Made by a program: the position numbers and the translations under genes. Shown piece by piece: positions 25,643 to 62,857 of a stretch of 64,000 nt of DNA. This DNA is from Sipunculus nudus (Eukaryota; Annelida; Sipuncula; Golfingiida; Sipunculidae). Position 1 is the stretch's first letter; each line of letters opens with the position of its first letter. Under the pieces are notes generated by a model. The model had not been told where the DNA came from. It saw only the letters and a program-made list of their open reading frames with translations, and made no database searches. The DNA lies in contig CM049311.1 of the NCBI GenBank assembly GCA_026874595.1, positions 39,080,676 through 39,144,675 on the forward strand, in the 5' to 3' direction.

Positions 25643-27095
25643 AATCATCAGTCAGTAATTTAATGTACCAGTCAGTGATCAGTTATCAGTCAGTAATTTT
25701 ATGTACCAGTCAGTGATCAGTTATCAGTCAGTAATTTCATGTACCAGTCAGTGATCAGTTATCAGTCAGTAATTTTATGTACCAGTCACTTATCATTTAT
25801 CAGTCAGTAATTTTATGTACCAGTCAGTGATCATTTATCAGTCAGTAATTTTATGTACCAGTCAGTGATCAGTTATCAGTCAGTAATTTAATGTACCAGT
25901 CAGTGATCAGTTATCAGTCAGTAATTTAATGTACCAGTCAGTGATCAGTTATCAGTCAGTAATTTTATGTACCAGTCAGTGATCAGTTATCAGTCAGTAA
26001 TTTTATGTACCAGTCAGTGATCAGTTATCAGTCAGTAATTTTATGTACCAGTCAGTGATCAGTTATCAGTCAGTAATTTTATGTACCAGTCAGTGATCAG
26101 TTATCAGTCAGTAATTTTATGTACCAGTCAGTGATCAGTTATCAGTCAGTAATTTCATGTACCAGTCACTTATCATTTATCAGTCAGGAATTTCATGTAC
26201 CAGTTAGTGATCAGTTATCAGTCAGTAATTTTATGTACCAGTCAGTGATCAGTTATCAGTCAGTAATTTCATGTACCAGTCACTTATCATTTATCAGTCA
26301 GGAATTTCATGTACCAGTTAGTGATCAGTTATCAGTCAGAAATTTCATGTACCAGTCAATAAACAATTATCTGTCAGTAATTTCATGTACCAGTCAATGA
26401 TCGATTATCAGTCAGTAATTTTATGTACCAGTCAGTGATCAGTTATCAGTCAGTAATTTCATGTACCAGTCACTTATCATTTATCAGTCAGGAATTTCAT
26501 GTACCAGTTAGTGATCAGTTATCAGTCAGGAATTTCATATACCAGTCAATAAACAATTATCTGTCAGTAATTTCATGTACCAGTCAATGATCGATTATCA
26601 GTCAGTAATTTTATGTACCAGTCAGTGATCAGTTATCAGTCAGTAATTTCATGTACCAGTCACTTATCATGTATCAGTCAGGAATTTCATGTACCAGTTA
26701 GTGATCAGTTATCAGTCAGGAATTTCATGTACCAGTCAATAAACAATTATCTGTCAGTAATTTCATGTACCAGTCAATGATCAATTATCAGTCAGTAATT
26801 TTATGTACCAGTCAGTGATCAGTTATCAGTCAGAAATTTCATGTACCAGTCACTTATCATGTATCAGTCAGGAATTTCATGTACCAGTTAATGATCAGTT
26901 ATCAGTCAGGAATTTCATGTACCAGTTAATGATCAGTTATCAGTCAGGAATTTCATGTACCAGTCAATAAACAATTATCTGTCAGTAATTTCATGAACCA
27001 GTCAATGATCGATTATCAGTCAGTAATTTCATGTACCAGTCAATGATCAATTATCAGTCAGTAATTTCATGTACCAGTCAATAAACAATTATCAG
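25643..27095 (+). repeat. 38-bp minisatellite array with 190-bp higher-order repeat
   Basis: About 38 copies of a 38-bp unit built from CAGTCAGTGATCAGTTATC, then AGTCAGTAATTTTATGTAC. The unit length is almost perfectly constant. A variant containing CACTTATCAT occurs at 25787, 26167, 26281, 26471, 26661 and 26851. Those distances are 380, 114, 190, 190 and 190 bp, all exact multiples of 38. The 3' half is therefore organised as a five-unit (190 bp) higher-order repeat. The 93-codon open frame at 26119-26400 is a product of the repetition. It lies in the 18 kb intron and ends at 'cagtcgaactaag'. Confidence 0.95.
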
Positions 27096-28640
27096 TCGAA
27101 CTAAGAGAAAGGAATTACATATGCAGGCCTGAGTTATTAATAATATTGCCAGATTGTTGTAACAGTAATATTTACATGGTCAAGTGCAACAATAAAACAA
27201 AAACTGTAACTTCTTTTCTGTCCACCAGGATTTGATATTTTTCTGATATTAGGCAAATACAGCTGAGTGAAGTAACCCATGGGGCCCTTTTTTTTCTTCT
27301 TTTCACAGAATGTTCGGCCCGGATTTTGAATTGATAAAGAAGCATGAATCTAATCTCAGTATTAGCATTCATGCATCATAATGACTTCCACAAGTTTATT
27401 GTACACAGCTATTACAGGCCTTCTCTGTCTTTAATCTGGTGATATAGCTGAGGCTTTGAATTAAGTAACAATGATCAGAAGCTTTTTAAACAGGACAGAA
27501 GTAATCACTGAACATGTACGTTGGACACTGAATGGGACTGTTTGTGTTATTTCTTTCCTTCTTGTTGTAATCTGCTGCCACTCAACACAGAAAGCTTGAT
27601 TAAATCTTAAAATAGATACACTGTTCATTGTATAAACAAGGTTTTATTGGGCATGGCAATTGATTTGTCCAGGCTATGGCTTTTTAATCATGTAACCTTT
27701 CCTCTCTAAATAAAGAGACTACCAGTATTTTTCTCAGAAAACTATATGTAAAATTATAGAATTTGAAATCCTGGGAGGTTTTACTTTAACTGAATTTCCA
27801 TGATTCCAGCCTTTGGTAATCCAAATATTAATATCCAGATTAAGTCATGTTCAAGTAGTTAGGACATCAGCCTGTTTAAGTCATTAATAATTCAGCCTTG
27901 GACAGTCTTAATCTGAATATGCTTATTAAGTCATGTTCTAGTAGTCAAGACATCAGTCTGTTTAAGTCATTAATACTTCAGCCTTATACAGTCAAAACTT
28001 GATTATCATAATTAAGTCATATAAAAATGGACAAACTCTTAAGATATTAGTCCATTTAGTCAGTGACTTGAGTCCATTACAGTCTCATCTGTAATCTATT
28101 GTAAGTCCAAGTTTAATTTTTGTATGTAAGATTAGATGACGAATGGACCCTCTGACTTAGCAATCCACAGTAATTTTCTCAGCTTAATTTAAAGCATACA
28201 TTTAACAAATGCTTTCTGGGTAGATTATATTTTTAATATTCACACATCATTATATAACCATGCAGGCAAGTGCCATGTAATTGAAACAGCTGCAAAACTG
28301 CTTGCTCAGCATGTTTTCATAAAAAAAAACAGTGCTGCAGACAAGTTGAAAGAACACACATATTTTACTGCTCACCCACACACGACCTGCTGGAAGATAA
28401 GAACTGGGAATGTATATTGAATTTCTGATGGTTCCCGCAAAGATGACCCTGCAGCGCTAGAGTGAGCACCCCTGGAAACGGTCTGCTGCGGCAGAAACTG
28501 TCCGTTATATTGCCCTGCTGCCAGACTGAGTAGATTAGCTATGCCAGTTTGTTGGGCCCTGTTACCAATTCCATTGTGTAGTTGGCACAAATTGCCAATA
28601 TTGTCAGATTTCTTTTACTTGTCATGCAATTTTCAGAACC
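27096..28640 (+). other. Intron with a local ~105 bp tandem duplication
   Basis: At about 27825-28065 a unit 'ttaagtcatgttc.agtagt.a.gacatcag.ctgtttaagtcattaat' is repeated twice plus a partial copy. A decayed family E-like 3' end (cagctgagtgaagtaacccatgg) is at 27260-27282. A GC-richer patch at 28370-28560 has no recognisable coding content. Confidence 0.45.
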
Positions 28641-33513: not shown

Positions 33514-36500
33514 TAGCTCAGCTGACTATAAGTCATCTGAGCTATAGTCGTGCTCCATTGTCCGTCGTCCGACTGTCTGTCCGTCCGTCCGTCAGTAAGT
33601 AGATGTGGCACGTTTTGAAACCGTAAGACCTAGGAATCCAAAATTGGGCATAATGTTAGATGTCCCCAAGATCTCCTACCAAGCCGAAAACTGGGTGTTT
33701 GCAACTTCGTTCCTTTGAGAAATTAAGGAAAATCCTCAATTTTTTATTAAAAACCTATTTTCACACTTCAGGACTGCCTAATATCAAAACCACTCATCTG
33801 TTTTACCTCATATTTACCATAAATATTCCTCTATATAGTTCCTATGTACATGCCAGAAATTATGTCTGTATTATTTAATTTAAAAAAGTTATGGGCCCAA
33901 ACATAATGCATTTTGTAAAAAATCAGAAAAGATATTTGATCACTTAACACAAAAAATGTTAATGCTATGGACCTTTTTTCCAGTAATATAACTTTAATTA
34001 ATCAAAATTAAATTGTATACCCAAAATTAGATGAAAATCTTTAAAATTTTTAAAAATATTAATAAAAATAAAAAATTGGTACCTTAAATTTTGCCCAACT
34101 TTGACCATGGCACGTTTTTTTCCTGTAAGTACTGTGGATTTAATTTTCTTCCCATGTTTTTGTTACCATTTTGTCTGTTAACACCAAAAATTTGAAACCA
34201 GTTGATCAAAAACTGTAGATTTTAATCAAGTTTTCAAGCACCATGTAACATATTGTTTACATCAAGCTAGTGTTATGCAGTTTGCAAGAGCTCAGCTCCC
34301 CAGCTTCAGCTCTAAGTTCCTTAAATTCGGCATACAGTTAGATGTCTCCAAAATGCCCTACCATGCCAAGAATTTGGTCACTATGACATTCGAGATATTA
34401 ATGAAAAATTTCATTTTTCCATTAAAAACCCATTGTTACATTTCAAGACTGCCTAATATCAAAACCACTGATCTGACTTTAATTATAAATAATATACATA
34501 TTTTTCATTCTCTATGCACATGCCAGAATGATGTCAGTATTGTGTAATTGTATCCGCCAAAACAGAGTTTTGCGGATACTATGTTTTCAGCTGGTCGCCG
34601 CCGCCGCCGCCGCCGCCGCGTAGGTGTCCGGAGAACTCCTCCGTAACCGCTGGGCGGAATTTTCCGAAACGCGGGATCATGTTCGGGTCACATGTGAACT
34701 GCTGCGCCCCGATTTTGTTTTGACCTCTGACCTTTCCTCTGCGCTCTGCGTCCGTTTGTGCGTCTGTTTCCACACATAAACCCACATATCTCGGGAACCG
34801 TTTGACCGATCAGGAAAATTTTTTTGCACAAATGTAGCCCTCGGAGAGCTTTATAACATACACCAAAAATGGTGGCGCCACCTGCAACCATGTTTGCACA
34901 GTGTCCATCTGTTCGTCTGCCTTGGGTTAAAATCACTCATATCTCTGCAGTGACTTGACTAATTCACCTGAAATTCGGCATGCGCAAACATCCTGGATAG
35001 CTTTTCTTATTTTATGACAGGTGGCGCCACCTACATTCACGTTTACGCTGCAGACATCCAAGCTCATATCTCGGGAACCGTTTGACCGATCAGGAAAATT
35101 CTTTTGCACAAATGTAGCCCTTGGAGAGCTTTATAACATACACCAAAAATGGTGCCGCTACCTGCAACCATGTTTGTACAGTGTCCATCTGTTTGTCTGC
35201 CTTGGGTTAAAATCACTCATATCTCTGCAGTGACTTGACTAATTCACCTGAAATTTGGCATGCGTATACATCCTGGATAGCTTTTCTGATTTTATGACAG
35301 GTGGCGCCACCTACATTCACGTTTACGCTGCAGACATCCAAGCTCATATCTCAGGAACCGTTTGATTGATCAGGAAAATTTTTTTGCACAAATGTAGCCC
35401 TTGGAGAGCTTTATAACATACACAAAAAATGGTGGCGCCACCTGCAACCATGTTTGCACAGTGTCCAGCTGTTCGTCTGCCTTGGGTTAAAATCACTCAT
35501 ATCTCTGCAGTGGTTTGACTAATTCACCTGAAATTCTGCATGCTTATACATCCTGGATAGCTTTTCTGATTTTATGACAGGTGGCGCCACCTACAATCAA
35601 GTTTACGCTGCAGACATCCAAGCTCATATCTAGGGAACCGTTTGACCAATTGGGCCAAAATTTTGCATGTGTATAGTTCTCACAAAGCTCTTTATCATAC
35701 GCTAAACTGGTGGCGCCACCTGCAACCCTTTTTTGCACAGCGTCCATCTGTTTGTCTGCCAAGGGCAAAAATCACTCATATACAATATAGTGGTTTGACT
35801 TATCTGCCTTAAATTTTGCATATGTATACAACTTGGACGGCTTTCTGGATTTTTTGGTAGGTAGCGCAACCTACATACACAATTTGGCTGCAGACATCCA
35901 TGCTGATATGCAACACTTCACCCGTTCCACTCTGATTTAGGCGGATACAAGTAGTCGCTTGTCGACTACCCGTATTCTAGTTGTTTTAAGTTATGGGCCC
36001 AAACATAATGCACTTTGTAAAAAATCAAGAAATATATTTACTCCCTTAACAAGAGCATTGCTGAAGCTAGAGATTTTTTTGTCAGGAATGTAACATTATT
36101 TAATCAAGATTCAATTGAATACCCAAAATTAGTTCTGAATTTTTCAAATTTATTTAGTATAAATATAAAATTAGTACCTTAAATTTTGCCCAACTGTGAC
36201 CATGGCACGTTTGTTTCCCGTGAGCACTGTTGATATAATTTTCATATCATGCACACATAAGCATTTCAGCTTTTTAGTTTAGAAAGCTGAAAGAAATCGG
36301 CCAAAAATTGTAGCTTTTATTAATGATTTTTATGAGACCCTGTCAGACTTTGGCTCTCTCCAGCCCCTCTTGAGTCACCTGTATGTTGACCTTGTTGACC
36401 TTTCATCAAATTATGCACGCTTGAGGCGAGGCATACATGGAATCCAGGCAGCTTATGGCAAGCCACAGTTGATCCAGGTGTCCAACCCAACTCATCTAGT

Positions 36501-37664: not shown

Positions 37665-37899
37665 GGCTGTATTCCTGACCCCTACAAGCTGAGAGAATTT
37701 GTATGTATACCGCCCCCTGGTGGTGAGAGGTTGTACTGCACCATGATGCGTCACGGTGAGGAGAGCATCGGAGGTTATTACACGTTGTACCTTGAGTACC
37801 TGGGGGGTATGATCCCCCTTCTGAAAGGAAGGAGGGCGTCCAAAATAAGACCAGAGTTCATCATCTACGACCCAAAGATCAGAGTCATGGATAAAACTG
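37665..37899 (+). CDS. TULP4: TULP4 exon, conserved TULP4-specific region
   Basis: 235 nt. The acceptor is gtctctaaacag and the donor is ACTG|GTATGT. It enters in phase 0 and leaves 1 nt of a split codon. The product begins GCIPDPYKLREFVCIPPPGG and contains CTMMRHGEE, YYTLYLEYLGGMIPLLKGRR and ASKIRPEFIIYDPK. These segments are nearly invariant in TULP4 (family form: CTM, YTLYLEYLGG, LKGRR, LRPEFVI). The exon follows directly on the SOCS-box exon although an 18 kb intron lies between. The first internal ATG is at codon 27, which would be the earliest start for any transcript begun inside the preceding intron. Confidence 0.95.
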
Positions 37900-40441: not shown

Positions 40442-41899
40442 TGTATCCGCCAAAACAGAGTTTTGCGGATACTATGTTTTCAACTGCACGCCGCCGCTGC
40501 CGCCGCCGCGTAGGTGTCCGGAGAACTCCTCCGTAACCGCTGGGCGGAATTTTACGAAACCCGGGATTATGTTCGGGTCACATGTGAACTGCTGCGCCCC
40601 GATTTTGTTTTGACCTCTGACCTTTCCTCTGCACTCTGCGTCCGTTTGTGCATCTGTTTCCACACATAAACCCACATATTTCCAGAACCGTTTGACCGAT
40701 CAGGAAAATTTTTTTGCACAAATGTAGCCCTTAGAGGGCTTTATAACATACACAAAAAATGGTGGCGCCACCTGCAACCATGTTTGCACAGTGTCCATCT
40801 GTTTGTCTGCCTTGGGTTAAAATCACTCATATCTCTGCAGTGACTTGACTAATTCACCTGAAATTCGGCATGCGTATACATCCTGGATAGCTTTTCTGAT
40901 TTTATGACAGGTGGCGCCACCTACATTCACGTTTACGCTGCAGACATCAGAGCTCATATTTCCAGAACCGTTTGACCGATCAGGAAAATTTTTTTGCACA
41001 AATGTAGCCCTTAGAGGGCTTTATAACATACACAAAAAATGGTGGCGCCACCTGCAACCATGTTTGCACAGTGTCCATCTGTTCGTCTGCCTTGGGTTAA
41101 AATCACTCATATCTCTGCAGTGACTTGACTAATTCACCTGAAATTCAGCATGCATATACATCCTGGATAGCTTTTCTGATTTTAGGACAGGTGGCGCCAA
41201 CTACATTCACGTTTACACTGCAGACATCCAAGCTCATATCTCGGGAACCGTTTGACCGATTGGGCCAAAATTTTGCATGTGTATAGATCTCACATAGCTC
41301 TTTATCATACGCAAAACTGGTGGTGCCACCTGCAACCATGTTTGCACAGTGTCCATCTGTTCGTCTGCCTTGGGATAAAATCACTCATATCTCGGCAGTG
41401 GTTTGACATATCTGCCTTAAATTTTGCAGGTTTATACATCCCAGACAGCTCTCTTGATTTTATGACAGGTGGCGCCACCTGCATTCTAGTTTATGCAGCA
41501 GACATCCAAGCTCATATCTTGGGAACCGTTTGACCGATTGGGCCAAAGTTTTGCATGTGTATAGTTCTCACATAGCTCTTTATCATACGCAAAACTGGTG
41601 GTGTCACCTGCACCATTTTTGCTCAGCGTCCATCTGTTTGTCTGCCACGGGCTAAAATCACTCATATACATGTAGTGGTTTGACTTATCTGCCTTAAATT
41701 TTGCATATGTATACAACTTGGACGGCTTTCTGGATTTTGTGGTGGGGGGGCAACCTACATACACAATTTGGCTGCAGACATCCATGCTTATATGCAACAC
41801 TCTATTTCCCCTTGCCACTCAACCCATGCCTCACTTCACCCGTTCCACTCTGATTTAGGCGGATACACGTAGTCGCTTGTCGACTACCTGTATTCTAGT
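40442..41899 (+). mobile_element. Family A Helentron-like element, complete copy A5
   Basis: The 5' hairpin is at 40443-40472 (GTATCCGCCAAAAC / GTTTTGCGGATAC). A GCC-rich tract is at about 40490-40508 and TGACCTCTGACCT at 40611-40623. Tandem ~280 bp units carry ggtggcgccacct (about 40762, 40911, 41042, 41469). The 3' end has GGCGGATAC (41858-41866), the perfect stem GTAGTCG-CTTGT-CGACTAC (41869-41887) and CTAG (41895-41898). It interrupts a minisatellite unit cleanly at a TT, so the insertion site can be read. It is 1.46 kb and non-coding. Confidence 0.9.
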
Positions 41900-47008: not shown

Positions 47009-49431
47009 GTGAACCTGTGAGCTTATGTGAGATTGGCATCATCTGTCTCCTGTCGTCTGTCGTCAGTATGTTAATTAACCCATACTATGTTGAAAATGGC
47101 AAGAGCTAGCATCACAAAATTATATGCAAAAAGTCATTAAAAAAAAAACTATCAGAATTTGCTTATTTTTTTGCTATCTTCATTTACTTAGATTTTATAG
47201 GGGAAAAGCAAAAAACCTTTAAAAATCTTCTTCTCAGAAACTGTTGAGCCAAATTGTTCAGTATTTCATAGAGATGATCCCAGGAACAATCTCTCTCAAG
47301 TTTGTTCGAATGGTTCCAGTTCAGTGATTTTGGCCAAGTTACAGGAGCTGAACTTAGTCATTTGGCAAAAAGCATACTAAAATTTTAATTTCAGAAATGG
47401 CAGGAGCTATCATCACCAAATTTTGGTGACATGAGTTATATTCAAAATTGAGGTATTGGTGGCTCCACTTTTTTGACCATTCCTGTAAAGGGTGACCGGT
47501 CATCAGTTAAGTAACCCATAATTTCTCAGGAACTGCAGGAGCCAGCTTCCCCAAATTTTATGCAAAAATCAGTTCCATGTCAAATGTTGTGGGATTAAGC
47601 TTTTTGTGGCGCCTACTGCATTGATTTTTCTGGGGGAAAACTAGAAAACCTTTGAAAATCTTTCAAAATTGTTTAGCCAAATTGTTCAATATGTCACAGA
47701 ATGATCTCAGAGATGAGCTCTCTCAAGTTTGTTCAAATGGTTTGGGTTTGATAAATTTTGCCAGAGATACAGGAATTTGAACTTCGTCGATTTTCCAGGT
47801 AAGCATAATGACATAACAGTTTCAGAAACAACAGGAGCTAACATCACCAGGTTTTGTGCAAATGTTTGTCACCTGACTCATTGAAATTGAGGTTTTTATG
47901 GCACCACCTACATTGACCTGTTTTTTATGAGCATAAACCTTGTAATTTTAGCCTCTTTCAGCTTAAAAATGATTTAAGATGAATCTGTCAAGCTGAATGG
48001 TTTAATTTAGCACAAAAATTATCCTAGGTTAGAGTTCTCACTAGTTGCATAAGAATAGATTGGAATCATTGATTTTTGGCAGAATTATTGTACTTTTATT
48101 AATGAAAGGACTGTGAGATACTTTGGTAAACAAACATTGTAGGTTTAAAGTAATAACAAACAGTGCCCTTTGGTTATATATAATATAAGTAGAAATGTAC
48201 AGGCAACACAAATAATTAGTTTCCGTATCCAGTTAATGTGTAAGATAAATCCATGGATAAAAAATATATCTGTTTTCTGATTTGCTTTCAATGGGCATCT
48301 ATTGTTATTCTTGACATTTTGATAAACAAAAATCTTATGAATATGAAGCTTGAAAAAAGCACTGTAGCCAAAGTCTTTTAGTATGTAAAAACAGATATTT
48401 CATTATGCCAACATTTTGTGTCTGTCCATAAATAGCTTGGCAGACTGCAAACTTTTCTCAGACTTTAACAGGCCAAATTTCAGTCTGGATCTATATAAAG
48501 CTTTGGCAGACTGCCAACTGTACAGACTGCCAACTGTATCAGATTTTGCTATAGGTCAAGAGTTCACTCAGTGCAGTAGCTGCTGCTAGCAATTAGCTTT
48601 GCTTGACTTGGGGCAACTTCCTGCCTCAGCTGAGCTTGGTCAGCCCAGTGCACCCGACTCAAGAGAATTCAGTGTATCAGCCTGAAATTTTGGCCTTTCT
48701 ATGCATCTTTGATGACTTTTATGTACACAAGACTGGTGTCGTCACCTACAAAGAGTTTTGCTCAGTGTATGTCCCTGCTTATTTCTCTGGAGGGATTTGA
48801 TATCTCAGCCTGAAATTTTGCTTATCTATACAAATTTGATAGCTTCTTAGGATACAAGACTGCTGGCACCAACTGCAATAATATTTGCAAAGTGAATGTC
48901 CCTGCTTATTTCTCAGGAGGAATTTGATATATCACCCTGGAATTGGGCATATGTATACATTTGGATAGCTTTGTCATATAAAAGATTGGTGGCTCCACCT
49001 ACAATAATTTTTGCACAGTGTATGTCCCAGCTTATTTTTCAGGAGTGATTAGACATATCATCCTGAAATTGTGCATGTCAATACAACTCAGATAGTTTTG
49101 TTTTAAACAAGTCTTGTGGCATCACCTATAACTTTCTTTGGGTTTCATGTATCTGTGCACATAGCTCAAGAGAGGTTTGAAGTATTAGCCTTGAATTTTG
49201 CATGTCCATACATGTTTGATGGCTTTTCTAATACACAAGGCTGGTGGCATTATCTACAATCATTTTGTGTTGTGTACATTCATGTCAGTATTTCAGGAGT
49301 GATGTTTATATAATTGGTGCTTATACTTGGGTTCAAAATGTTTAGTACTTGAAAAGTAATGGTCCAGCATGGAAGCATTATACCTTATGTATATCCCATT
49401 GCACAGGTTTGTATTAGGCCTATAGGCTTTT
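47009..49431 (+). mobile_element. Family D Helentron-like element, copy D3
   Basis: It starts with tGAACCTGTGAGC (one mismatch) at about 47010, with CTGTCGTCTGTCGTC after it. It ends with CACAGGTTtG (about 49402), AGGCC-TATA-GGCTT and TTT at 49431. The interior shows D features ('gaaatggcaggagctatcatcaccaaa', 'ttggcagactgccaactgtatcagatt'). It is more diverged than D1, D4 and D5. At 49255-49270 it reads through the site where other D copies hold a family A element. Confidence 0.7.
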
Positions 49432-51685: not shown

Positions 51686-52448
51686 AAGGTATAGGTCAAG
51701 AGTTCACTCAGTGCAGAAGCTGTATTCTATTTATAGCTTTGGTAGACTGCTCACTGCATCATATTTGGCACCATATTTAAGTTCAGCCTGAATCTATTTA
51801 TAGCTTTGGCAGACTGCCAACTGTGTCAGATTATGCAACAGGTCAAGAGTTCACTCAGTGCAGCCAGGTACAGGTCAAAAGTTCACTCAGTCTAGCCAGG
51901 TGCAGGTCAAGAGTTCACTCAATGCAGTAGCTTGAGGCAGCAATTTGTCACAGGTCACTCAGGGGCAACTGCCTTACTCACCTAAGCCTTGTCAGCCCAG
52001 TGCATCAAACTCTGGGGAAGTTTGATGTATTGGACTGATACCTGTCTATGCGTCTTTGATGGTATTCTCATATACATGACAGGTGGTGCCACCTACATTG
52101 ACTTTTGCAGTGTATGCACCTGCTTATTTCTACATCAGCCTAAAATTGGGTATGTTTATACATATCCAGTAGCTTTAGAGTGTACAAGACTGGTGGAGCC
52201 ACCTACAATAATTTTTGCACAGTGTATGTCCCTGCTTATTTCAACAGAGGGGTTTGACATATCAGTCTGACATTGGGCATATGTATATATCTCATCGTTG
52301 TATATAAGACTGGTGGTGCCAGCTACAATCATTGTATCTGCCAAAACAGTTTTACTATGTTTTACTATGTTTCTAGTCGGAGGCCGACGCTGCCGCCATC
52401 ACCGCATAGGTTTCCGGAGAAGTCCTCCATAACCACAGGGCAGAATTA

Positions 52449-55400
52449 TTAGCGAACCTGTGAGCTTATGCGATGGTGCGGCGTCGTCCGTCAAGTGTCG
52501 TGCGTCATCTGTACGTTAACCATAGCTATCTCAAAATGGCAGGAGCTAGCATCCCCAAATATTTTGCAAATAATCAGTCATCCAAAAAACTATATCAGAT
52601 TTTGTTTATTTTTTTTCTAACTTCATTTTCTTAGATTTCAGAGGGAAAAAGCTGAAAAAGCTTTAAAAATCTTCTTCTCCGAAATTGTCCAGCCAAATTG
52701 TCCAATATTTCACAGAAATGATCCCTGGAACAATCTTTCTCAAGTTTGTTCGAATCGTTCCAGTTCAGAGATTTTTGGCTGAGTTACAGGAGGTTAAACT
52801 TTGTTACCTGTGCAAAAAAGCATATTAAAATTTAAATCTCAGAAACGGCCAGGGCTATCATCACAAAATTTTATGCCAATGTTGGTCACATAAGTCATAT
52901 CTGAAATTGAGGTATTGGTGGCGCCACCTGCATCTGCCTATTTTGTACGGGGTCATCAGTGCCTGTATCACACTGAGGGCTACAAAAAACTTCTTCTCTG
53001 AAACCATATGGCCAAAATGTTTAATATCGCACAGAAATGATCCTAGGGTAGTGCTTTCTGAAGTTTGTTCAAATGGTCTCAGTTCAGTGACTTTTGGCTA
53101 AGTTATGGGAAGCTGAATTTAGTCATATGCCATAACAGCCCATTTTAGCTCAGTGGCTACAAAGATCTTCTTCTCAAAAACCACTAGGCCAAATTCTTAA
53201 ATCTCACACATTAATTATCCTTAGATGTTGATAATTCAAGTTTGTTCAAATGGTTTTGGTTCAGTGCTTTTTGGCTGAGTTACGGTAGCTGAACTTGGCC
53301 AGTTTGCTGCATCTTCCTATATGAGTTATAAACCTGCAAAATGTATTTCGACTGATGACATTGAAGCCAGTTTGTTAAATAATTTCCAAGAATAATCCCT
53401 ACAATTATTTTTATAATAATTGTCATTAATGGTTCCACATGAATGATATTTGGCTGAATTATGGAGCTTGAATTGAGTCATTTTAACATATATGTTAGCT
53501 GTGTGATGCTGTTACATCTAGCCTGGCACCAGTTTATCAGCATCTATTACATCATGCCACTAGACATTTAGATTTCAGGTTATCTTTGGTTAATATTGTT
53601 AAAGAAAGTTTTTTTTAAAAGCTTTTAAAAAATTTAGATTTATGATTTAAGTTATTCATCATACCAGGCAATGTTACAATCATGGATATTCAGTTCTCTG
53701 TGGCTATATAGAGACAACTGTTCGTGGATTATACATTATTGGTATCCCTACTCAACTTAATTCAAGAATTTGCCATCAATGAGATATATCTGTATTTTAA
53801 TTTGCATTCAGTATGTATCCATAATAATTTTACATATATTCCTGATTTCTTTATTATGAAAAGTCAGCTGAAAAGCATTTTGTATTGGGAAAATAAATTT
53901 CAAAGTTATCACAAGTAGGGAGCACTTTTGTGTACAGATGGCAGCACTTGGTTTACCATTGGCAGATTGCCAGTGCCTTGATGTTGGCCATTAGCCAAGA
54001 TGATTTCAGCTCTATAAATAGTTTTGGCACAGTGCCAGGATTGGAAGAAGTGCAGCCAGGTATAGGTCAAGAGTTCACTCAGTGCAGTAGCTGCATTCTA
54101 CTTATAGCTTTGGCAGACTGCTCACTGCATCATATTTGGCACCAGAGTGCAGCCTGAATCTATTTATAGCTTTGGCAGACTGCCAACTGTGTCAGATTAT
54201 GCAACAGGTCAAGAATTCACTCAGTGCAGCTAGGTACAGGTCAAAAGTTCACTCAGTCTAGCCAGGTGCAGGTCAAGGGTTCACTCAGTGCAGTAGCTTG
54301 AGGCAGCAATTTGTCACAGGTCACTCGGGGGCAACTGCCTTACTCACCTAAGCCTTGTCAGCCCAGTGCATCAAACTCTGGGGAAGTTTGATGTATTGGA
54401 TTGATTTTTTTACCTGTCTATGCGTCTTTGATGGTATTCTCATTTACAAGACAGGTGGTGCCACCTACATTGACTTTTGCAGTGTATACGCCTGCTTATT
54501 TCTACAGAGGAATTTTATACATCAGCCTAAAATTGGGCATGTATATACATATCGGGTAGCTTTATAGTGAACAAAACTGGTGGCGCCACGTACAATAATT
54601 TTTGCACAGTGTATGTCCCTGCTTATTTCATAGGAGGGGTTTGTTTGACATACTGGTGGTGCCAGCTACAATCATTGTATCCGCCAAAACAGAGTTTTGC
54701 GGATACTTTGTTTTCAGTCGGACGCCTAAGCTGCCGCCATTGCCGCATAGGTTTCCGGAGAACTCCTCCATAACCACTGGGCAGAATTTTTTAAAATTCG
54801 GAATTATGATCGGTCATATGTGAAATGCTGCGCCCTCATTTTTGGTTGACCTCTGACCTTTCCACATAGGTTTCCGGAGAACTCCTCCATAACCACTGGG
54901 CAGAATTTTTTTAAAATTCGGAATTATGATCGGTCATATGTGAAATGCTGCGCCCTCATTTTTGGTTGACCTCTGACCTTTCCACACATAAACCCACATA
55001 TCTCGGGAACCGTTTGACCGATAAGGCTAAAGATTTTGCACAAATGTAGCCCTTTGATATCTTTATAACATACACTAAAAATGGTGGTGCCACCTGCAAC
55101 CATTTTTACACAGCGTCCATCTGCTGTTCAGCCTTGGGATAAAAACACTCATAACTCTGCATTGGTTGGACTTATCCACCTGAAATTTTGCATGTGTATA
55201 CAAGCTTTCTTGATTTTATGACAGGTGGCGCCACCTACATACATATTTTGGCTGCAGACATCCAGGCTATTATGCAACACACCTCACTCTATTTCCCCTT
55301 GCCACTCAATCTATGCCTCACTTCACCTTTCCCACTCTGATTTTGGCAGATACACGTAGTCACTTGTTGACTACCCATATTCTAGTTTTTCTGTTGTGTG

Positions 55401-55580: not shown

Positions 55581-57123
55581 TAAAATTCGGAATTATGATT
55601 GGTCAAATGTGAACTGCTGCGCCTACATTTTTGGTTGACCTCTGACCTTTCCTCTCTGCCCAGCGTCCATTTGTTTGTCTGTTTCCACACATAAACCCAC
55701 ATATCTCGGGAACCTTTTGACCGATAAGGCTAAAGATTTTGCACAAATGTAGCCCTTGGAAAGCTTTATAACATACACTAAAACATGGTGGCACCACCTG
55801 CAACCATTTTTGCACAGCGTCCATCTGTTCATCTGCCTTGGGATAAAAATACTCATATCTCTGCATTGGTTGGACTTTCCATCTGAAATTTTGCATGTGT
55901 ATACATCCTGAACAGCTTTCTTGATTTTATGACAGGTGGCGCCACCTACATTCACATTTAAGCTGCAGACATCCAAGCTCATATCTCGGGAACAGTTTGA
56001 CCAGTTGGGCCAAAATTTTGCATGTGTATAGATTTCCCATAGCTCTTTATCATACGCAAAACTGGTGGTGCCACCTGCAACCATTTTTGCACAGTGTCCA
56101 TCTGTTCATCTGTCTTGGGATAAAATCACTAATATCTAGGCAGTGCTTTGACTTATCCACCTGATATTTTGCAGGTTTTTACATCCTTGACAGCTTTCTT
56201 GATTGTATGACTGATGGCACCATCTACATTCAAATATATGCTGCAGACATTCAAGCTCATATCTCAGGAACCATTTACCCGATTTGGCAAAAATTTTGTG
56301 TGTTTATAGATCTTACATAGCTCTTTTTCATACGCTAAACTGGTGGTGCCACTTGCAATCATTTTTGCACAGCATCCGTCTGTTTGTTTGCCGTGGCTTA
56401 AAATCACTCATATCTCGGCAGTGGTTTGACAAAGCTGCCTAAAATTTTGCAGGTTTATTCATGTTGGATAGCTTTCTGGATATTGTGGCAGGTGGCACCA
56501 CCTACATTTATGTATACGCTGCAGACATTCAGGCTTATATCTCAGGACTGGTTTGACATATCCCCCTGAAATTAGGATGTGTATAGATCTCACATAGCTC
56601 TTAATCATACACAAAATTGGTTGCGCCACCTGCCACCATTTTTGCACAGCGTCCATCTTCTTTCTGCCACGGGCTAAAATCACTCATATCTTAGTAGTGG
56701 TTTGACTTATCTGCCTAAAATTTTGCATGTTTATTCATCTTGGACAGCTTTCTGGATTTTGTGATAGGTGGTGCAACCTACATACACATTTCAGCTGCAG
56801 ACATCCAGGCTATTATGCAACACACCTCACTCTATTTCCCCTTGCCACTCAATCCATGCCTCACTTCACCTTTCCTACTCTGATTTTGGTGGATACACGT
56901 AGTCGCTTGTTGACTACCCATATTCTAGTTTTTCTGTTGTGTGCACCCATGCCAGAATTGCAGCAGTGATGTTTGTTTAATTGTTTCTTGTTCTAAGTGT
57001 TTAGTACTTGCATTGTTCATATACATGTTACACATGTTCTTGAAAAGTAATGGTCCAGCATTGAAGCATTATACCTGGTGTAATCTCATTGCACAGGTTC
57101 GCATTAGGCCTGTAGGCCTTGTT

Positions 57124-57251
57124 GCTTGCCGGAATCAAAGATTTCGGCAAGCATATTGGTCAGTTGCGTATGTCTGTTTGTCTGTCTGTCTGTCTGTTTG
57201 TTGCTTGCCGGAATCAAAGATTTCGGCAAGCATATTGGTCAGTTGCGTATA

Positions 57252-57288
<37 letters not shown>

Positions 57289-60200
57289 TTGTTTGTCACC
57301 ACTCTCCTGGCCACAATTTTGCCACAATAACCTTGAAACTTACAGGGATGTTGGAAAACATAATTTCTAGATGCCCTATTGTTTTTGGTTAAAATAGGTC
57401 AAAGGTCAAGGTCAAGGTCGTCAAAACTTCTCAAAACGTTTTTTTCTTCATATCTTTGTGACTATTAGTCCTATCTACTTCAACAATAGCTCATTTTAAT
57501 CGTCATTCCAAGGCCTGTCATCTGGTGTGTAGCTGACTCAAATTTGCCGTAACCATGGTTACAATTTTTGGGGGAAAAGTCATGATATTCGAAAATAAGG
57601 GATCTTATTTTTCTAACTTTGTCAGTTTTAAAGCTAGAGTGATCTAGTTTTTTGCATCAGGTAGCATTCAACTAGTACTACAAGATTTTATTACAAGTCT
57701 TGCAGTATCTCGTAAAATATCTCGTGAATAGAGATATTTCGAGATTTCATTCATCTTGCGCCAAAGGCCACATTATTGCAGGAATCTTTTTGAATCTGAC
57801 ATATCATAAGTCCTACACTAGTATCTCGAAATTGTTTTTTCATTTTTTGAATATGGCTGCTAGGGGGCGCTGCACACGACCCTCACAGATATCATTACAT
57901 TGGCCATATCTCTAAAACCCAAAGCCTCAATTACATAAACTATAGCTTATTTTTCCCTCTGAGTCTTCTCCATAAACGGATAATGTCATCTGGTCTCAAT
58001 GTTGTGTCACTGTGTCATTGTGTCCGTCTGTTTGTCAGTTGTCCTCAAATTTGCCTGCTTGCTTTTGCGTCTCACATATAGCATTCTACAGGCCACAGTT
58101 TTGAAAGAATCCTTTTGAAACTATTACATCTTAAGTCTTACACTAATATCTCGAAACGAATTTTTCATTTTCCGGATATGGCCACTAGGGGGGGCTGAAC
58201 TCGAACCTCTCCCAGCATATCATGCTTTTTTGTTTGTTTGTTTGTCATCAATCTCCTGACCACAATTTTGCCACAATAACCTTGAAACTTACAGGGATGA
58301 TGAAAAACATAATTTCTAGGTGTCCTTTTGTTTCTGGCCAAAATAGGTCAAAGGTCAAGGTCAAGGTCGTCAAAACTTCTCAAAAGGGTTTTTTCTTCAT
58401 ATCTTTGTGACTATTAGTCGTATCTACTTCAACGATAGCTCATTTTAATCATCATTCCAAGGCCTGTCATCTGGTGTGTAGCTGACGCAAATTTGCCGTA
58501 ACCATGGTTACGAATTTTGGGGAAAGTCATGATATTTGAAAATAAGGGGTCTTATTTTTCCAACTTTGTCAGTTTTAAAGCTAGAGTGATCTAGTTTTTT
58601 GCATCAGGTAGCATTCAACTAGTACTACAAGATTTTATAAAAAGTCTTGTAGTATCTCGTAAAATATCTCGTGAATAGAGATATTTCGAGATTTCATTCA
58701 TCTTGCGTCAAAGGCCACATTATTGCAGGAACCTTTTTGAAACTGTCAAATCATAAGTCCTACACTAGTATCTCGAAATTGTTTTTTCATTTTTTGAATA
58801 TGGCTGCTAGGGGGCGCTGCACACAACCCTCACACACATATCATTACATTGGCCATATCTCTTAAACCCAAAGCTTACATTACATAAACTATAGCTTATT
58901 TTTTCCCTCTGAGTCTTCTCCATAAACTGATAATGTCATCTGGTCTCAATGTTGTGTCACTTTGTCGGTGTGTCTGTCTGTTTGTCAGTTGTCCTCAAAT
59001 TCGCCTGCTTGCTCTTGCGTCTCACATATAGCATTCTACAGGCCACAGTTTTGAAAGAATCCTTTTGAAACTATTACATCTTAAGTCTTACACTAATATC
59101 TCAAAACAAATTTTCCATTTTCCGGATATGGCCGCTAGGGGGCACTGAACTCGAACCTCTCCCAACATATCATGCTTTGGCAATATCTCCAAATCTATAA
59201 ACCTCAGTTACATAAACTGTAGCTTTTTTCTTCCTTTGAGTCTTCTTCATAACCTGGAGAAGTCATCTGGACTCAATCTTGAGTCACTTTGTCAGTGTGT
59301 CCGTCTGTTTGTCAGTTGTCCTAAAATTCGCCTGCTTGCTGGTTCTTGCGTCTCACATATAGCATTCTATAGGCCACAGTTTTGATGAAATCCTTTTGAA
59401 ACTATTACACCTTATGTCTTACACTAATATCTAGAAAATAAATTTTTCATTTTCCGGATATGGCCACAAGTGGGCGCTGCACACGACCCTCACACACATA
59501 CCAATGTATTGGCCATATCTGTACACCCAAAGCCTCAGTTACATAAACTAAAGCTTATTTTCTTCCTTTGAGTCTTCTGCATAACCTGATTAAGGCATCT
59601 GGTTTCAATCTTCTGTCACTTTGACAGTGTGTCCATCTGTTTGTACGTTATCCTCAAAGTCGCCTGCTTGCTGGTTCTTACGCCTTACATATAGCATTCT
59701 ACAGGCCACAGCTTTGACGGAATCCTTTTGAAACTGGGACATCTTATGTCATACACTAATAATACGAAACGCATTTGTCATCTTCGGAATATGTCCGCTA
59801 GAGGGCGCTACAGACGAACCTCCCAAGTATATAATTAATTCGCCATACCTCCAAAACTATAAATCTAAATTACATAAATTATAACTCATTTTCTTCCTTT
59901 GAATCTTCTCCATAACTAGGTAAAGTCATCTGGTGTCAATCTTGTCTCACAAAGTCAGTATGTCTGTCTGTTCGTCTTTTGTTGTCAGCTTTGTCTGCTT
60001 CCCTGTTCTTTTGTCTCATATGTCATTCTACAGGCCACATATTCTCAGCAATGTCCCTGAGAGTCATTCCATTAATAGAAAACCGACAATATGTACTGTC
60101 TGTCTGTCTGTGTTTCACTTCTGATTTCCGGCAAGCGTTCGACCTATGGTCGTCTAGTTTGTTTGTTTGTCACCACTCTCCTGGCCACAATTTTGCCACA

Positions 60201-62857
60201 ATAACCTTGAAACTTACAGGGATGTTGGAAAATATAATTTCTAGGTGCCCTATTGTTTTTGGTTAAAATAGGTCAAAGGTCAAGGTCAAGGTCGTCAAAA
60301 CTTCTGAAAAGGGTTTTTTCTTCATATCTTTGTGACTATTAGTCGTATCTACTTCAACAATAGCTTATTTTAATCGTCATTCCAAGGCCTGTCATCTGGT
60401 GTGTAGCTGACTCAAATTTGCCGTAACCATGGTTACAAATTTCTAGGGAAAAGTCATGATATTCGAAAATAAGGGATCTTATTTTTCTAACTTTGTCAGT
60501 TTTAAAGCTAGAGTGATCTAGTTTTTTGCATCAGGTAGCATTCAACTAGTACTACAAGATTTTATTACAACTCTTGCAGTATCTCGTAAAATATCTCGTG
60601 AATAGAGATATTTCGAGATTTCATTCATCTTGCGCCAAAGGCCACATTATTGCAGGAATCTTTTTGAAACTGACATATCATAAGTCCTACACTAGTATCT
60701 CGAAATTTTTTTTTCATTTTTTTAATATGGCTGCTAGGGGGCGCTGAACACGACCCTCACACAGATATCATTACATTGGCCATATCTCTAAAACCCAAAG
60801 CCTCAATTACATAAACTATAGCTTATTTTTTCCCTCTGAGTCTTCTCCATAAACTGATAATGTCATCTGGTCTCAATCTTGTGTCACTTTGTCAGTGTGT
60901 CCGTCTGTTTGTCAGTTGTCCTCAAATTCGCCTGCTTGCTCTTGCGTCTCACATATAGCATTCTACAGGCCACAGTTTTGAAAGAATGCTTTTGAAACTA
61001 TTACATCTTAAGTCTGACACTAATATCTCGAAACCAATTTTTCATTTTTTTGATATAGCCGCTAGGGGGCGCTGAACTCGAACCTCTCCCAACATATCAT
61101 GCTTTGGCAATATCTCCAAAACTATAAACCTCAGTTACATAGACTGTAGGTTTTTTCTTCCTTTGAGTTGTCTCCATAATCTGGAGTAGTCATCTGGACT
61201 CAGTCTTGAGTCACTTTGTCAGTGTGTCCGTCTGTTTGTCAGTTGTCCTCAAATTCGCCTACTTGCTGGTTCTTGTTTGTTTGTCACCACTCTCCTGGCC
61301 ACAATTTTGCCACAATAACCTTGAAACTTACAGGGATGATGAAAAAGGAAATTTCTAGGTGCCCTATTGTTTTTGGTTAATATAGGTCAAAGGTCAAGTC
61401 AAGGTCGTCAAAACTTCTTAAAACGGTTTTTTCTCCATATCTGTGTGACTTTCAGTTGTATCTATGTCAACAATAGCTCATTTTAATCGTCGTTCCACGG
61501 CCTGTCATTTGGTGTGTAGCTGATTAAAATTTGGTGTAACCATGGTTACAAATTTTGGGGGAAAAGTCAGGATATTCGAAAATAAGGGGTCTTATTTTTC
61601 TAACTTTGTCAGTTTTAAAGCTAGAGTGATCTAGTTTTTTGCATCAGGTAGCATTTAACTAGAACTACAAGATTTTATTACAACTCTTGCAGTATCTCAT
61701 AAAATATCTCGTGAATAGAGATATTTCGAGATTTCATTCATCTTGCGCCAAAGGCCACATTATTGCAGGAATCTTTTTGAAACTGACATATCATAAGTCC
61801 TACACTAGTATCTCGAATTTGTTTTTTCATTTTTTGAATATGACTGCTAGGGGGCGCTGCAAACGACCCTCACACATATATCATTACATTGGCCATATCG
61901 CTAAAACCCAAAGCCTCAATTACATAAACTTTAGCTTATTTTTTTCCTCTGAGTCTTCTCCATAAACTGATAATGTCATCTGGTCTCAATCTTGTGTCAC
62001 TTTGTCAGTGTGTCCGTCTGTTTGTCAGTTGTCCTCAAATTTGCCTGCTTGCTGGTTCTTGCGTCTCACATATAGCATTCTACAGGCCACAGTTTTTAAA
62101 AAATCATTTGAAAACTGATGCATATTATGTTTCACAGAAATATCTCTAAACTTTTTTTCTATTTTCCGGATATGGCCGCTAGGTGGCGCTGCACATGACC
62201 CTCACACACATATCATTATATTGACCATATCTCTAAAACCCAAAGGCACAATTACAGAAAGTATGGCTTATTTTCTTTCCCTGAGTCTTTTCCATGACCT
62301 AGTAATGTCATCTGGTCTCAATCTTGTGTCACTTTGTCAGTGTGTCTGTTTGTCAGTTGTCCTAAAATCCGCCTACTTGCTGGTTCTTGCGTCTCATATA
62401 TAGCATTCTAAAGGCCACAGTTTTTTTTTCAGGAATCCTTTTAAAACTGGTACATCTTATGTGTTACACTAATATCTCAAAACAGATTTTTCATTTTTCG
62501 GATATAGCCACTAGGGGGCGCTGCACTTTCACCTCCCCAACATATCATATTTTGGCTATCTCTCCAAAATTATAAACCTTACATACATAAACTATCACTA
62601 ATTTTGCTCTTCTTCACCTTCGGCGCTTTTGTCTGTAATCTGTTATCACAGATGTGTCAGTATGTCTGTCTGTTCGTCTTTTGTTGTCAGCTTTGTCTGC
62701 TTCCTCGTTGCTTTGTCTGATATGTCATTTTACAGGCCACAATTTCTCAACAAACGCTGAGTGTCATTCAAATAATAGAAAACCCACAATATGATCTGTC
62801 TGTCCGTCTGTCTGTCATTTCAACTTCTGGCAAGCGCTCGACCACTGGTCGTCTAGT
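57124..62857 (+). mobile_element. Family C Helentron-like element or concatemer with ~330 bp tandem units
   Basis: The 5' hairpin GCTTGCCG..CGGCAAGC is present twice (57124 and 57203), each followed by a (GTCT)n tract. The inverted copy TTCCGGCAAGC is at 60126-60136, followed by stem CGACC-TAT-GGTCG and CTAG (60154-60157). A second 3' end at about 62830-62856 has stem CGACC-ACT-GGTCG and CTAG. Four 'head' modules start at about 57289, 58231, 60169 and 61272 with 'ctcctggccacaattttgcc' and AGGTCAAAGGTCA. Each is followed by ~330 bp units containing 'cgtctgtttgtcagttgtcctc' and a CTCF-like 15-mer. Non-coding. Confidence 0.8.
57857..62522 (+). promoter_or_regulatory. Array of eleven CTCF-like motifs, all in one orientation
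   Basis: Motif starts are 57857, 58182, 58804, 59132, 59464, 59795, 60731, 61059, 61844, 62176 and 62508. Copies at 59132, 59795, 61059, 62176 and 62508 match the consensus CCRSYAGRKGGCRSY at all 15 positions; four copies have a single C-to-T change (CTGCTAGGGGGCGCT); 58182 has one mismatch and 59464 has two. Neighbouring motifs are mostly 325-332 bp apart, the length of the tandem unit. CTCF is present in molluscs as in most bilaterians; whether it binds here is not known. Confidence 0.55.

What the first reader, a model, noticed from the sequence alone, without database searches (positions are those of the whole stretch)
57857..62522. Mobile element carries eleven co-oriented CTCF-like sites at a ~330 bp repeat
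Seen: a 15-mer of the form CCRSYAGRKGGCRSY or with few mismatches occurs eleven times, always on the + strand. Seven of the ten neighbour distances are 325-332 bp. Four blocks each begin with the variant CTGCTAGGGGGCGCT and go on with CCGC/CCAC variants. Known: this is the core of the bilaterian CTCF motif, and in mammals SINEs have spread CTCF sites. Inference: a non-autonomous Helentron-like element may be scattering dense CTCF arrays in a mollusc genome, here in an intron of a very long gene. I know of no description of this.
Basis: partly seen in the sequence, partly recalled or inferred. Interest (0 to 1): 0.75.

Follow-up and report, generated by a model that had tools for sequence, protein, structure and literature searches.

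The report
Jumping DNA carrying CTCF-like site arrays
An abundant jumping element in this animal genome carries head-to-tail copies of a sequence that looks like a good landing site for the genome-folding protein CTCF, nearly always pointing the same way; whether CTCF really binds there has not been tested, but the sequence evidence makes it a sound and directly testable idea.

Summary
In detail: 11 co-oriented CTCF-like 15-mers, seven of ten gaps 325-332 bp, inside a HINE-type (non-autonomous Helentron-like) composite. The family is genome-wide: GCTAGGGGGCGCTG occurs 5,915 times against 1 for the reversed control. In C1:1-18.92 Mb, 90 of 155 strict CCRSYAGRKGGCRSY matches are of family type with a tandem neighbour. 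The genome encodes a CTCF orthologue whose fingers 3-5 have human-identical recognition residues and which keeps SVYDF. Non-family sites that I picked show CTCF-like flanks that the search did not impose. Individual copies decay at the motif as fast as elsewhere or faster. Subfamily consensuses mostly keep it: rank 1 of 267 with 12 aligned consensuses, but raw rank 56 with all 13 (cut 0.10). A branch-based test did not replicate in a second sample. Best reading: a rolling-circle element spreading oriented arrays of bindable CTCF sites, a new carrier and format for a process known from mammalian SINEs. Binding, looping and benefit to the element are inferred. No paper in the held library has both 'Helentron' and 'CTCF'.

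The parts
57119..57297 (+). 5' module of the HINE-type element: two tandem 79-bp copies holding GCTTGCCGGAATC..GATTTCGGCAAGC (palindromic subterminal repeat), then a TCTG/TTTG microsatellite
57298..57850 (+). leader block A (first copy), sequence ahead of the first 330-bp unit; further copies from about 58232, 60157 and 61270
   Evidence: (families D3-D5)
57857..57871 (+). CTCF-like site 1, CTGCTAGGGGGCGCT (type A, matrix 17.3)
58182..58196 (+). CTCF-like site 2, CCACTAGGGGGGGCT (22.1)
58804..58818 (+). CTCF-like site 3, CTGCTAGGGGGCGCT (17.3)
59132..59146 (+). CTCF-like site 4, CCGCTAGGGGGCACT (25.1)
59464..59478 (+). CTCF-like site 5, CCACAAGTGGGCGCT (20.9)
59795..59809 (+). CTCF-like site 6, CCGCTAGAGGGCGCT (22.2)
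60126..60157 (+). internal 3' terminus: CCGGCAAGC subterminal repeat, GACCTATGGTC hairpin, TCTAG, followed by T and a TTTG tract
   Evidence: (D17)
60731..60745 (+). CTCF-like site 7, CTGCTAGGGGGCGCT (17.3)
61059..61073 (+). CTCF-like site 8, CCGCTAGGGGGCGCT (24.2)
61844..61858 (+). CTCF-like site 9, CTGCTAGGGGGCGCT (15.9)
62176..62190 (+). CTCF-like site 10, CCGCTAGGTGGCGCT (25.0)
62508..62522 (+). CTCF-like site 11, CCACTAGGGGGCGCT (27.0)
62825..62856 (+). outer 3' terminus: GGCAAGC subterminal repeat, GACCACTGGTC hairpin, TCTAG, followed by T
   Evidence: (D17)

Best explanation
A non-autonomous Helentron (HINE-type) element whose central satellite-like unit of about 330 bp carries one bindable CTCF core site per unit. 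Shown: the element anatomy; several thousand copies; one site per unit in one orientation; a CTCF orthologue with the matching core-reading fingers and the SVYDF motif; retention of the motif in most subfamily consensuses. Inferred: (1) CTCF binds a good part of the young, intact units. (2) Because insertion is between Ts, and many copies sit in T-rich TTTG/TCTG tracts of other copies, composite arrays grow head-to-tail in one orientation, so the sites stay co-oriented. (3) Such arrays act as one-way cohesin stops or open, unmethylated patches. (4) This has helped element lineages to keep amplifying or be tolerated, so the site is kept in lineages that amplify while dead copies decay neutrally.
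For: Copy number and specificity: GCTAGGGGGCGCTG 5,915 v 1 reversed control; CCGSYAGRKGGCRSY 9,477 v 53; CCASYAGRKGGCRSY 4,264 v 41; unit anchor 5,924 v 0. Orientation: 69 of 70 close neighbour pairs of family sites on the same strand in C1:1-18.92 Mb; 25 of 25 strict CCG sites on - in C1:307634-327026. CTCF: fingers 3-5 identical to human at -1, 2, 3, 6; finger 7 keeps R(-1) and D(3); finger 6 keeps Q(-1); SVYDF aligns with human. The species uses this motif: 37 non-family sites show T at -12 (30/37), T at -15 (24/37) and A at +15 (27/37), none imposed by the pattern, where the mammalian second half-motif M2 would lie (distance from PMC3368268 section 8; side recalled). Constraint: rank 1 of 295 after correction for base and CpG class; 138 of 160 units reach 12.5 bits v 95.4 (sd 6.0) under simulated drift; 12 aligned subfamily consensuses rank 1 of 267, tolerance-profile p 0.011 (cut 0.10). 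Rough control: the palindrome of the 278-bp arrays in the same window is not conserved, rank 231 of 266 (16 units, indels at the palindrome). Helentron-type ends: 44 of 44 3' ends found precede T, 13 of 14 5' ends found follow TT, 26 of 44 3' ends run straight into a TYTG tract or another 5' end.
Against: No binding data. Individual copies: the motif gathers more terminal changes than average (8.07 v 5.72 per column), raw rank 233 of 294. The branch test that put the motif first of 58 in sample 1 gave rank 21 of 59 in sample 2 and 11 of 58 combined at the same threshold (8 to 24 of 58 at four other thresholds). With one random member per clade the adjusted rank is 1 for 58 clades, 18.5 for 40, 75 for 19 and 77.5 for 10. 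With the 13th consensus kept, raw rank is 56 and adjusted 7 at cut 0.10, and 98 and 43 at cut 0.18. The tolerance test is weak on distinct 15-mers (p 0.056) and singletons (0.107). Type A units (CTG...) break a nearly invariant CTCF position: 27 of 154 units have T at position 2. The family core (CCG...GGCGCT) differs from the commonest form in the sites I picked (CCA...GGCAGC), and its consensus has A, not T, at -15. The core has two CpGs; if methylated in place, binding may be blocked (recalled). The simulation treats units as independent, which overstates its z.
Confidence: 0.55

Rival explanations
1. Neutral passenger: the founding unit held a CTCF-like sequence by chance, and rolling-circle amplification, tandem duplication and homogenisation copied it. 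CTCF may bind some copies incidentally, but the site did nothing for the element and the apparent conservation reflects shared recent ancestry.
For: Individual copies decay at the motif at least as fast as elsewhere; the branch test did not replicate; rank drops with stricter thinning by relatedness; other windows, such as AAACTATAGCTTATT and ACTTTGTCAGTGTGT (the latter beside the anchor used for fetching), are more conserved in raw terms.
Against: Rank 1 of 295 after base and CpG correction; subfamily consensuses rank 1 of 267 when aligned (cut 0.10); variants tend to fall at CTCF-tolerant positions (p 0.029 over 154 units, 0.014 over 13 recurrent 15-mers; 0.056 over 60 distinct and 0.107 over 47 singletons); the palindrome of the 278-bp arrays is not conserved (rough).
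Confidence: 0.28
2. The conserved 15-mer is read by another factor: one of the many poly-zinc-finger proteins of this genome, or the Helentron Rep-helicase, and the CTCF likeness is secondary.
Against: The tolerance profile leans towards CTCF; the flank TGG before and G after the core in many units also fits the CTCF matrix; a site repeated in every satellite unit is not where a Rep acting on the ends is expected (inference).
Confidence: 0.12
3. Mostly silent: sites are bindable in vitro but the arrays are methylated or heterochromatic, so they play no part in genome folding. This can be true together with the best explanation's step 1 in vitro.
For: Two CpGs in the core (sequence); these columns change often (18 and 15 changes at the first CpG, 14 and 19 at the second, mean 9.6 per column).
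Against: Other CpGs in the unit change at similar rates (12-25 changes), so there is no sign of extra decay at the site; no chromatin data either way.
Confidence: 0.3

Closest known systems
Cg_HINE non-autonomous Helentrons of Crassostrea gigas (PMC7492417; abstract, passages and section 9 seen)
   Same: Same plan: 5' subterminal repeat with complementary inverted repeat, GTCY-type microsatellite, satellite-like central repeats, 3' subterminal repeat and palindrome, preference for TT, dispersal through the genome.
   Different: The term CTCF does not occur in the main text of that paper; unit sequence not compared with Cg_HINE monomers (their letters were not available here).
Mammalian SINE-borne CTCF sites (rodent B2, dog SINEC-Cf, opossum MAR_Mdo; PMC3368268, abstract and sections 8 and 10 seen)
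   Same: A mobile element carries a CTCF core to many places; core-only (M1) format as in dog and opossum.
   Different: Carrier has the anatomy of a rolling-circle DNA transposon, not a SINE; several co-oriented sites per array; not a mammal; binding unproven here.
DXZ4 and similar CTCF-bearing tandem arrays of mammals (PMC3218863, abstract seen)
   Same: Tandem array with CTCF binding; [quoted passage not shown]
   Different: DXZ4 is one X-linked locus of 3-kb units; here many mobile arrays of about 330-bp units.
Mutator TIR motif at placozoan chromatin-loop anchors (PMC12221973, passages seen)
   Same: A DNA transposon carries a loop-anchor motif in an invertebrate animal.
   Different: No CTCF in non-bilaterians; terminal repeat, not a central array; there loops were measured.

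Membership tests
Helentron / HINE | 5' subterminal palindromic repeat with complementary 3' subterminal repeat | tested here: met
   GCTTGCCGG...CGGCAAGC at 57124 and 57203; CCGGCAAGC / CTGGCAAGC before the two 3' ends in the window
Helentron / HINE | Short palindrome (stem-loop) near the 3' end | tested here: met
   GACC/GGTC hairpin followed by TCTAG at both window 3' ends; the 44 ends were found by this hairpin, so they are not an independent count
Helentron / HINE | Insertion between Ts | tested here: met
   44 of 44 3' ends followed by T (37 TT, 7 TC); 13 of 14 recognised 5' ends preceded by TT
Helentron / HINE | No target-site duplication; empty sites | not tested
   no empty-site search was made
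Helentron / HINE | Microsatellite in the left module and central tandem repeats | tested here: met
   TCTG x 11.5 at 57252-57297; 331/332-bp arrays at 58712-60039 and 61750-62569
Helentron / HINE | No coding capacity, moved by an autonomous partner sharing the ends | not tested
   Helitron-like Rep domains exist in the genome (at least 143 matches); a partner sharing these ends was not sought and ORFs of the element were not listed
TE-borne CTCF site dispersal (B2 type) | CTCF core in the element consensus and in thousands of copies | tested here: met
TE-borne CTCF site dispersal (B2 type) | CTCF bound at element copies in vivo | not testable with these tools
   no ChIP data held
TE-borne CTCF site dispersal (B2 type) | Host CTCF reads this motif | tested here: inconclusive
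   recognition residues of fingers 3-5 identical to human, finger 6 partly changed; CCASYAGRKGGCRSY about 100-fold over reversed control, family copies included, and picked non-family sites have unimposed flanks; no direct binding
TE-borne CTCF site dispersal (B2 type) | Motif more conserved than the rest of the element | tested here: inconclusive
   subfamily consensuses: yes when aligned (12 of 13; rank 1 of 267), raw rank 56 with all 13 (cut 0.10); individual copies: no in raw terms, yes after base and CpG correction, weaker when thinned by clade

The most novel reading that the evidence does not exclude
A rolling-circle transposon has captured the host's genome-folding protein: oriented multi-site CTCF arrays, grown by same-orientation insertion into T-rich tracts of sister copies, supply the majority of the strong CTCF core sites in this genome, act as movable one-way cohesin barriers, and are maintained by selection on amplifying lineages because CTCF occupancy keeps the donor copy open.
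Probability: 0.2. Interest if true: 0.88.

Novelty: new variant of a known kind. Interest (0 to 1): 0.62.

Why it matters
Repeat-driven spread of CTCF sites has been described in mammals (PMC3368268). Passages read in two reviews call spiralian 3D-genome data very sparse, with CTCF-like motifs linked to domain borders in one squid (PMC10658182, PMC10658181). A genome in which one DNA-transposon family supplies over half of the strict CTCF core matches in the stretch counted (90 of 155), nearly always co-oriented (69 of 70 close pairs), gives a natural test of whether motif orientation and clustering stop cohesin outside vertebrates, and of whether transposons drive the evolution of genome folding in invertebrate bilaterians.

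Tried and rejected
Branch-based constraint test (internal v terminal changes): the first run was biased because the tree was built without the motif; redone with every window left out in turn (motif rank 1 of 58), then tried on a second sample (rank 21 of 59; 15 of 59 at the other threshold) and combined (rank 11 of 58; 19, 14, 24 and 8 at four other thresholds). Not relied on.

A second CTCF-like family in the window (palindrome GGTGGCGCCACC in 278-280-bp arrays) was considered as convergent support; the palindrome is not conserved among 16 units (rank 231 of 266), so it is not counted. The alignment has indels at the palindrome, so as a control it is rough.

CTGSYAGRKGGCRSY was searched to see whether type A sites are acceptable to CTCF (2,291 v 36). 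Many listed places are this family or CAGGTGGCRCC words, so the question stays open.

Rows dropped: the search profile was built from 10 of the 11 window units, the chimeric unit at 58182 left out. Sample 1: 250 hits, 210 spanning, 196 used. Sample 2: 143 hits, 104 used. Combined: 390 hits, 298 spanning, 171 after removal of 97% duplicates, 160 after removal of 11 chimeric units, 154 without gaps in the motif for the tolerance test. One of 13 consensuses (10 at cut 0.20) with under 8 of 15 identities at the motif columns was dropped in the 'aligned' rows and kept in the 'all' rows; at cut 0.15 one consensus reads as the motif shifted by one column, which I take to be the same one. Of 40 non-family sites, 3 were dropped as relatives of L135, leaving 37; L133 and L139 share an exact 22-base match and were both kept; one search used 39 sites with complete flanks.
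Full report
OBSERVATION. Shuffles of the window give 2.78 matches on average and never more than 7 in 100, against 19 observed in the whole window. With a CTCF matrix (JASPAR MA0139.1, recalled, unverified) 13 places in the window reach 12.5 bits and 11 of these are the finding; 30 first-order Markov sequences give 1.37 on average and at most 3.

CARRIER. The sites lie in 331/332-bp tandem units within a composite that has two tandem copies of a palindromic 5' module at 57124 and 57203, a TCTG microsatellite, four copies of a leader block, and two 3' ends at about 60126-60157 and 62825-62856. The 3' ends have a subterminal GGCAAGC repeat complementary to the 5' one, a GACC/GGTC hairpin and TCTAG. 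In the fetched family loci plus the window, 44 of 44 3' ends found by the hairpin are followed by T and 13 of 14 recognised 5' ends are preceded by TT. This is the plan of HINE elements: subterminal inverted repeats, 3' palindrome, microsatellite, central satellite-like repeats, TT preference (PMC4067079, passages; PMC7492417, abstract, passages and section 9). Empty sites, coding capacity and an autonomous partner with the same ends were not tested; Helitron-like Rep domains are present in the genome (at least 143 matches).

COPY NUMBER. In the 1.43-Gb genome G000 the word GCTAGGGGGCGCTG occurs 5,915 times and its reversed control once; a 23-mer from the unit about 110 bp away from the motif occurs 5,924 times with at most two mismatches, control 0. 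CCGSYAGRKGGCRSY occurs 9,477 times (control 53) and CCASYAGRKGGCRSY 4,264 times (control 41). In C1:1-18.92 Mb, where the capped lists overlap, there are 155 strict CCR sites: 90 of family form with a tandem neighbour within 2.5 kb, 10 of family form alone, 55 others; 69 of 70 close neighbour pairs of family sites are on one strand. Family was judged by the 15-mer and its neighbours, not by flanks. A dense cluster read off the list has 25 strict CCG sites in C1:307634-327026, all on -.

CO-ORIENTATION. 26 of 44 3' ends run directly into a TYTG tract or another 5' end on the same strand, and none into the complementary tract. Since insertion is between Ts and the tract is T-rich on one strand only, insertion into sister copies should be in the same direction. 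This would explain the co-orientation without selection. It is an inference; the loci were picked by anchors inside the family, so composites may be over-represented.

DOES THE HOST READ THIS MOTIF? The best CTCF match in G000 is an open frame at C11:67037578 with 56% identity to the human fingers (L001, protein P0001). It has 11 C2H2 fingers. Residues -1, 2, 3, 6 of fingers 3, 4 and 5 are identical to human; finger 7 keeps R and D at -1 and 3; finger 6 keeps Q at -1 and differs at 2, 3 and 6. The N-terminal SVYDF aligns with human CTCF; that YDF contacts cohesin is recalled knowledge. I then took 40 CCASYAGRKGGCRSY places that did not look like the family (my choice among the first 100 listed; not all non-family places were taken); none matches the family loci by BLAST. 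In 37 of them, columns that the pattern did not fix carry signal: T at -12 in 30, T at -15 in 24, A at +15 in 27, and in 39 with complete flanks the four flank columns fit the CTCF matrix better than in any of 20,000 random draws from the same flanks. The upstream signal sits where the second half-motif M2 of mammalian CTCF sites is expected, 21-22 bp from the core centre (PMC3368268 section 8; that M2 lies on this side in this orientation is recalled). So this genome very likely uses the CTCF core at dispersed single sites. The family core is a core-only form: consensus TGGCCGCTAGGGGGCGCTG, with T at -12 in 151 of 160 units, in a T-rich stretch, but A at -15 in the consensus.

IS THE MOTIF KEPT? 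Sample 1 was 80 loci fetched by downstream anchors (60 by the exact anchor, 20 by a variant) plus the window; sample 2 was 40 loci fetched by an upstream variant anchor. Units were found with a profile in which the motif was masked. Against the idea: raw parsimony changes put the 15-mer at rank 233 of 294 in sample 1, with 8.07 terminal changes per column against 5.72 on average; the branch test was first of 58 in sample 1 but 21 of 59 in sample 2 and 11 of 58 combined. For it: in 160 thinned, non-chimeric units the motif has consensus frequency 0.898 against 0.848 overall, raw rank 49 of 295, and after correction for base and CpG class rank 1 of 295 (the CpG class outside the motif rests on 6 columns only). 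Non-CpG G columns outside average 0.80, while G7, G10 and G11 of the motif stand at 0.962, 0.950 and 0.987 and the tolerant G8 and G9 at 0.795 and 0.881. 138 of 160 units reach the 12.5-bit threshold, against 95.4 (sd 6.0) if the consensus had drifted like the rest of each unit (units treated as independent, so the sd is too small). Permuting the CTCF tolerance profile among positions with the same base gives p 0.029 (154 units), 0.014 (13 recurrent 15-mers), 0.056 (60 distinct) and 0.107 (47 singletons). With one random unit per clade the adjusted rank is 1 for 58 clades, 18.5 for 40, 75 for 19 and 77.5 for 10, of 264-266 windows, with median tolerance p 0.021, 0.05, 0.109 and 0.04. With clade consensuses of at least three members, 12 aligned consensuses give rank 1 of 267 raw and adjusted and tolerance p 0.011 (cut 0.10); keeping the 13th, which has under 8 of 15 identities at the motif columns, gives raw 56, adjusted 7 and p 0.0045. 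At cut 0.18 the aligned set gives raw 12 and adjusted 1, all 13 give 98 and 43. As a rough control the palindrome GGTGGCGCCACC of the 278-bp arrays in this window is not conserved (rank 231 of 266, 16 units, indels at the site).

READING. Old single copies decay at the motif; the subfamilies that amplified have mostly kept it, with changes leaning to positions CTCF tolerates. That is the pattern expected if the site mattered while elements were multiplying and not for each host locus. Shared ancestry and homogenisation could give part of it. The clear exception is type A, with T at a position that is nearly always C in the recalled mammalian matrix.

WHAT IS KNOWN. B2, SINEC-Cf and MAR_Mdo SINEs spread CTCF sites in mammals (PMC3368268 section 10). 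DXZ4 is a CTCF-bearing tandem array (PMC3218863, abstract). Cg_HINE elements have the same architecture and the term CTCF is absent from the main text of that paper. A Mutator terminal repeat carries a loop-anchor motif in placozoans (PMC12221973, passages). In two echinoderms CTCF motifs are enriched at boundaries without an orientation pattern (PMC13317027, passages), so one-way barrier function must not be assumed here. A search of the held open-licence library for papers with both Helentron and CTCF found none. Among the papers listed by related searches no title or abstract start speaks of CTCF sites carried by Helitrons or Helentrons; several listed reviews and one pig SINE paper hold both 'Helitron' and 'CTCF' in their text and I did not open them.

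VERDICT. Observation confirmed; interpretation partly supported. New carrier and new format (mobile, oriented, multi-site arrays from a rolling-circle-type element) of a known process. Binding is the missing fact.

Noticed in passing
window 37708-37726 (-): A strong single CTCF-like site outside the element, TCACCACCAGGGGGCGGTA, 26.5 bits, holding an exact match to CCRSYAGRKGGCRSY.
   Followed up: no
window 7835-8518, 34785-35909, 40675-41793, 55772-56811 (about 278-280 bp); 15743-16030, 48675-49128 (about 127 bp): Several tandem arrays of different unit length carry GGTGGCGCCACC or a variant in their consensus unit; in the 278-bp arrays it is not more conserved than the rest.
   Followed up: partly
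window 57396-57419 and other leader copies: The leader holds AGGTCAAAGGTCAAGGTCAAGGTC, a run of nuclear-receptor-like half sites (motif name recalled).
   Followed up: no
G000 C16, C7, C9, C11: At least 201 matches to the CTCF finger stretch at E <= 1e-20, many close together on a few contigs in long open frames: a large expansion of poly-zinc-finger genes.
   Followed up: no
L123-L162: Picked non-family CTCF-like sites have an unimposed upstream signal (T at -15 and -12) where the mammalian M2 half-motif would lie; L135, L137, L145 and more weakly L156 share flanks, hinting at another small repeat with a CTCF-like site.
   Followed up: partly
G000 C1 about 65.1-66.9 Mb: Very dense block of family copies with repeated spacings, possibly a segmentally duplicated or pericentromeric region.
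   Followed up: no
window 25647-27097: Minisatellite of 38 bp, 38 copies, 91% matches.
   Followed up: no
window 7049-7138, 15501-15587, 51838-51927, 54204-54293: The same 32-bp consensus unit ACAGGTCAAGAGTTCACTCAGTGCAGCCAGGT in 2.7-2.8 copies at four separate places.
   Followed up: no
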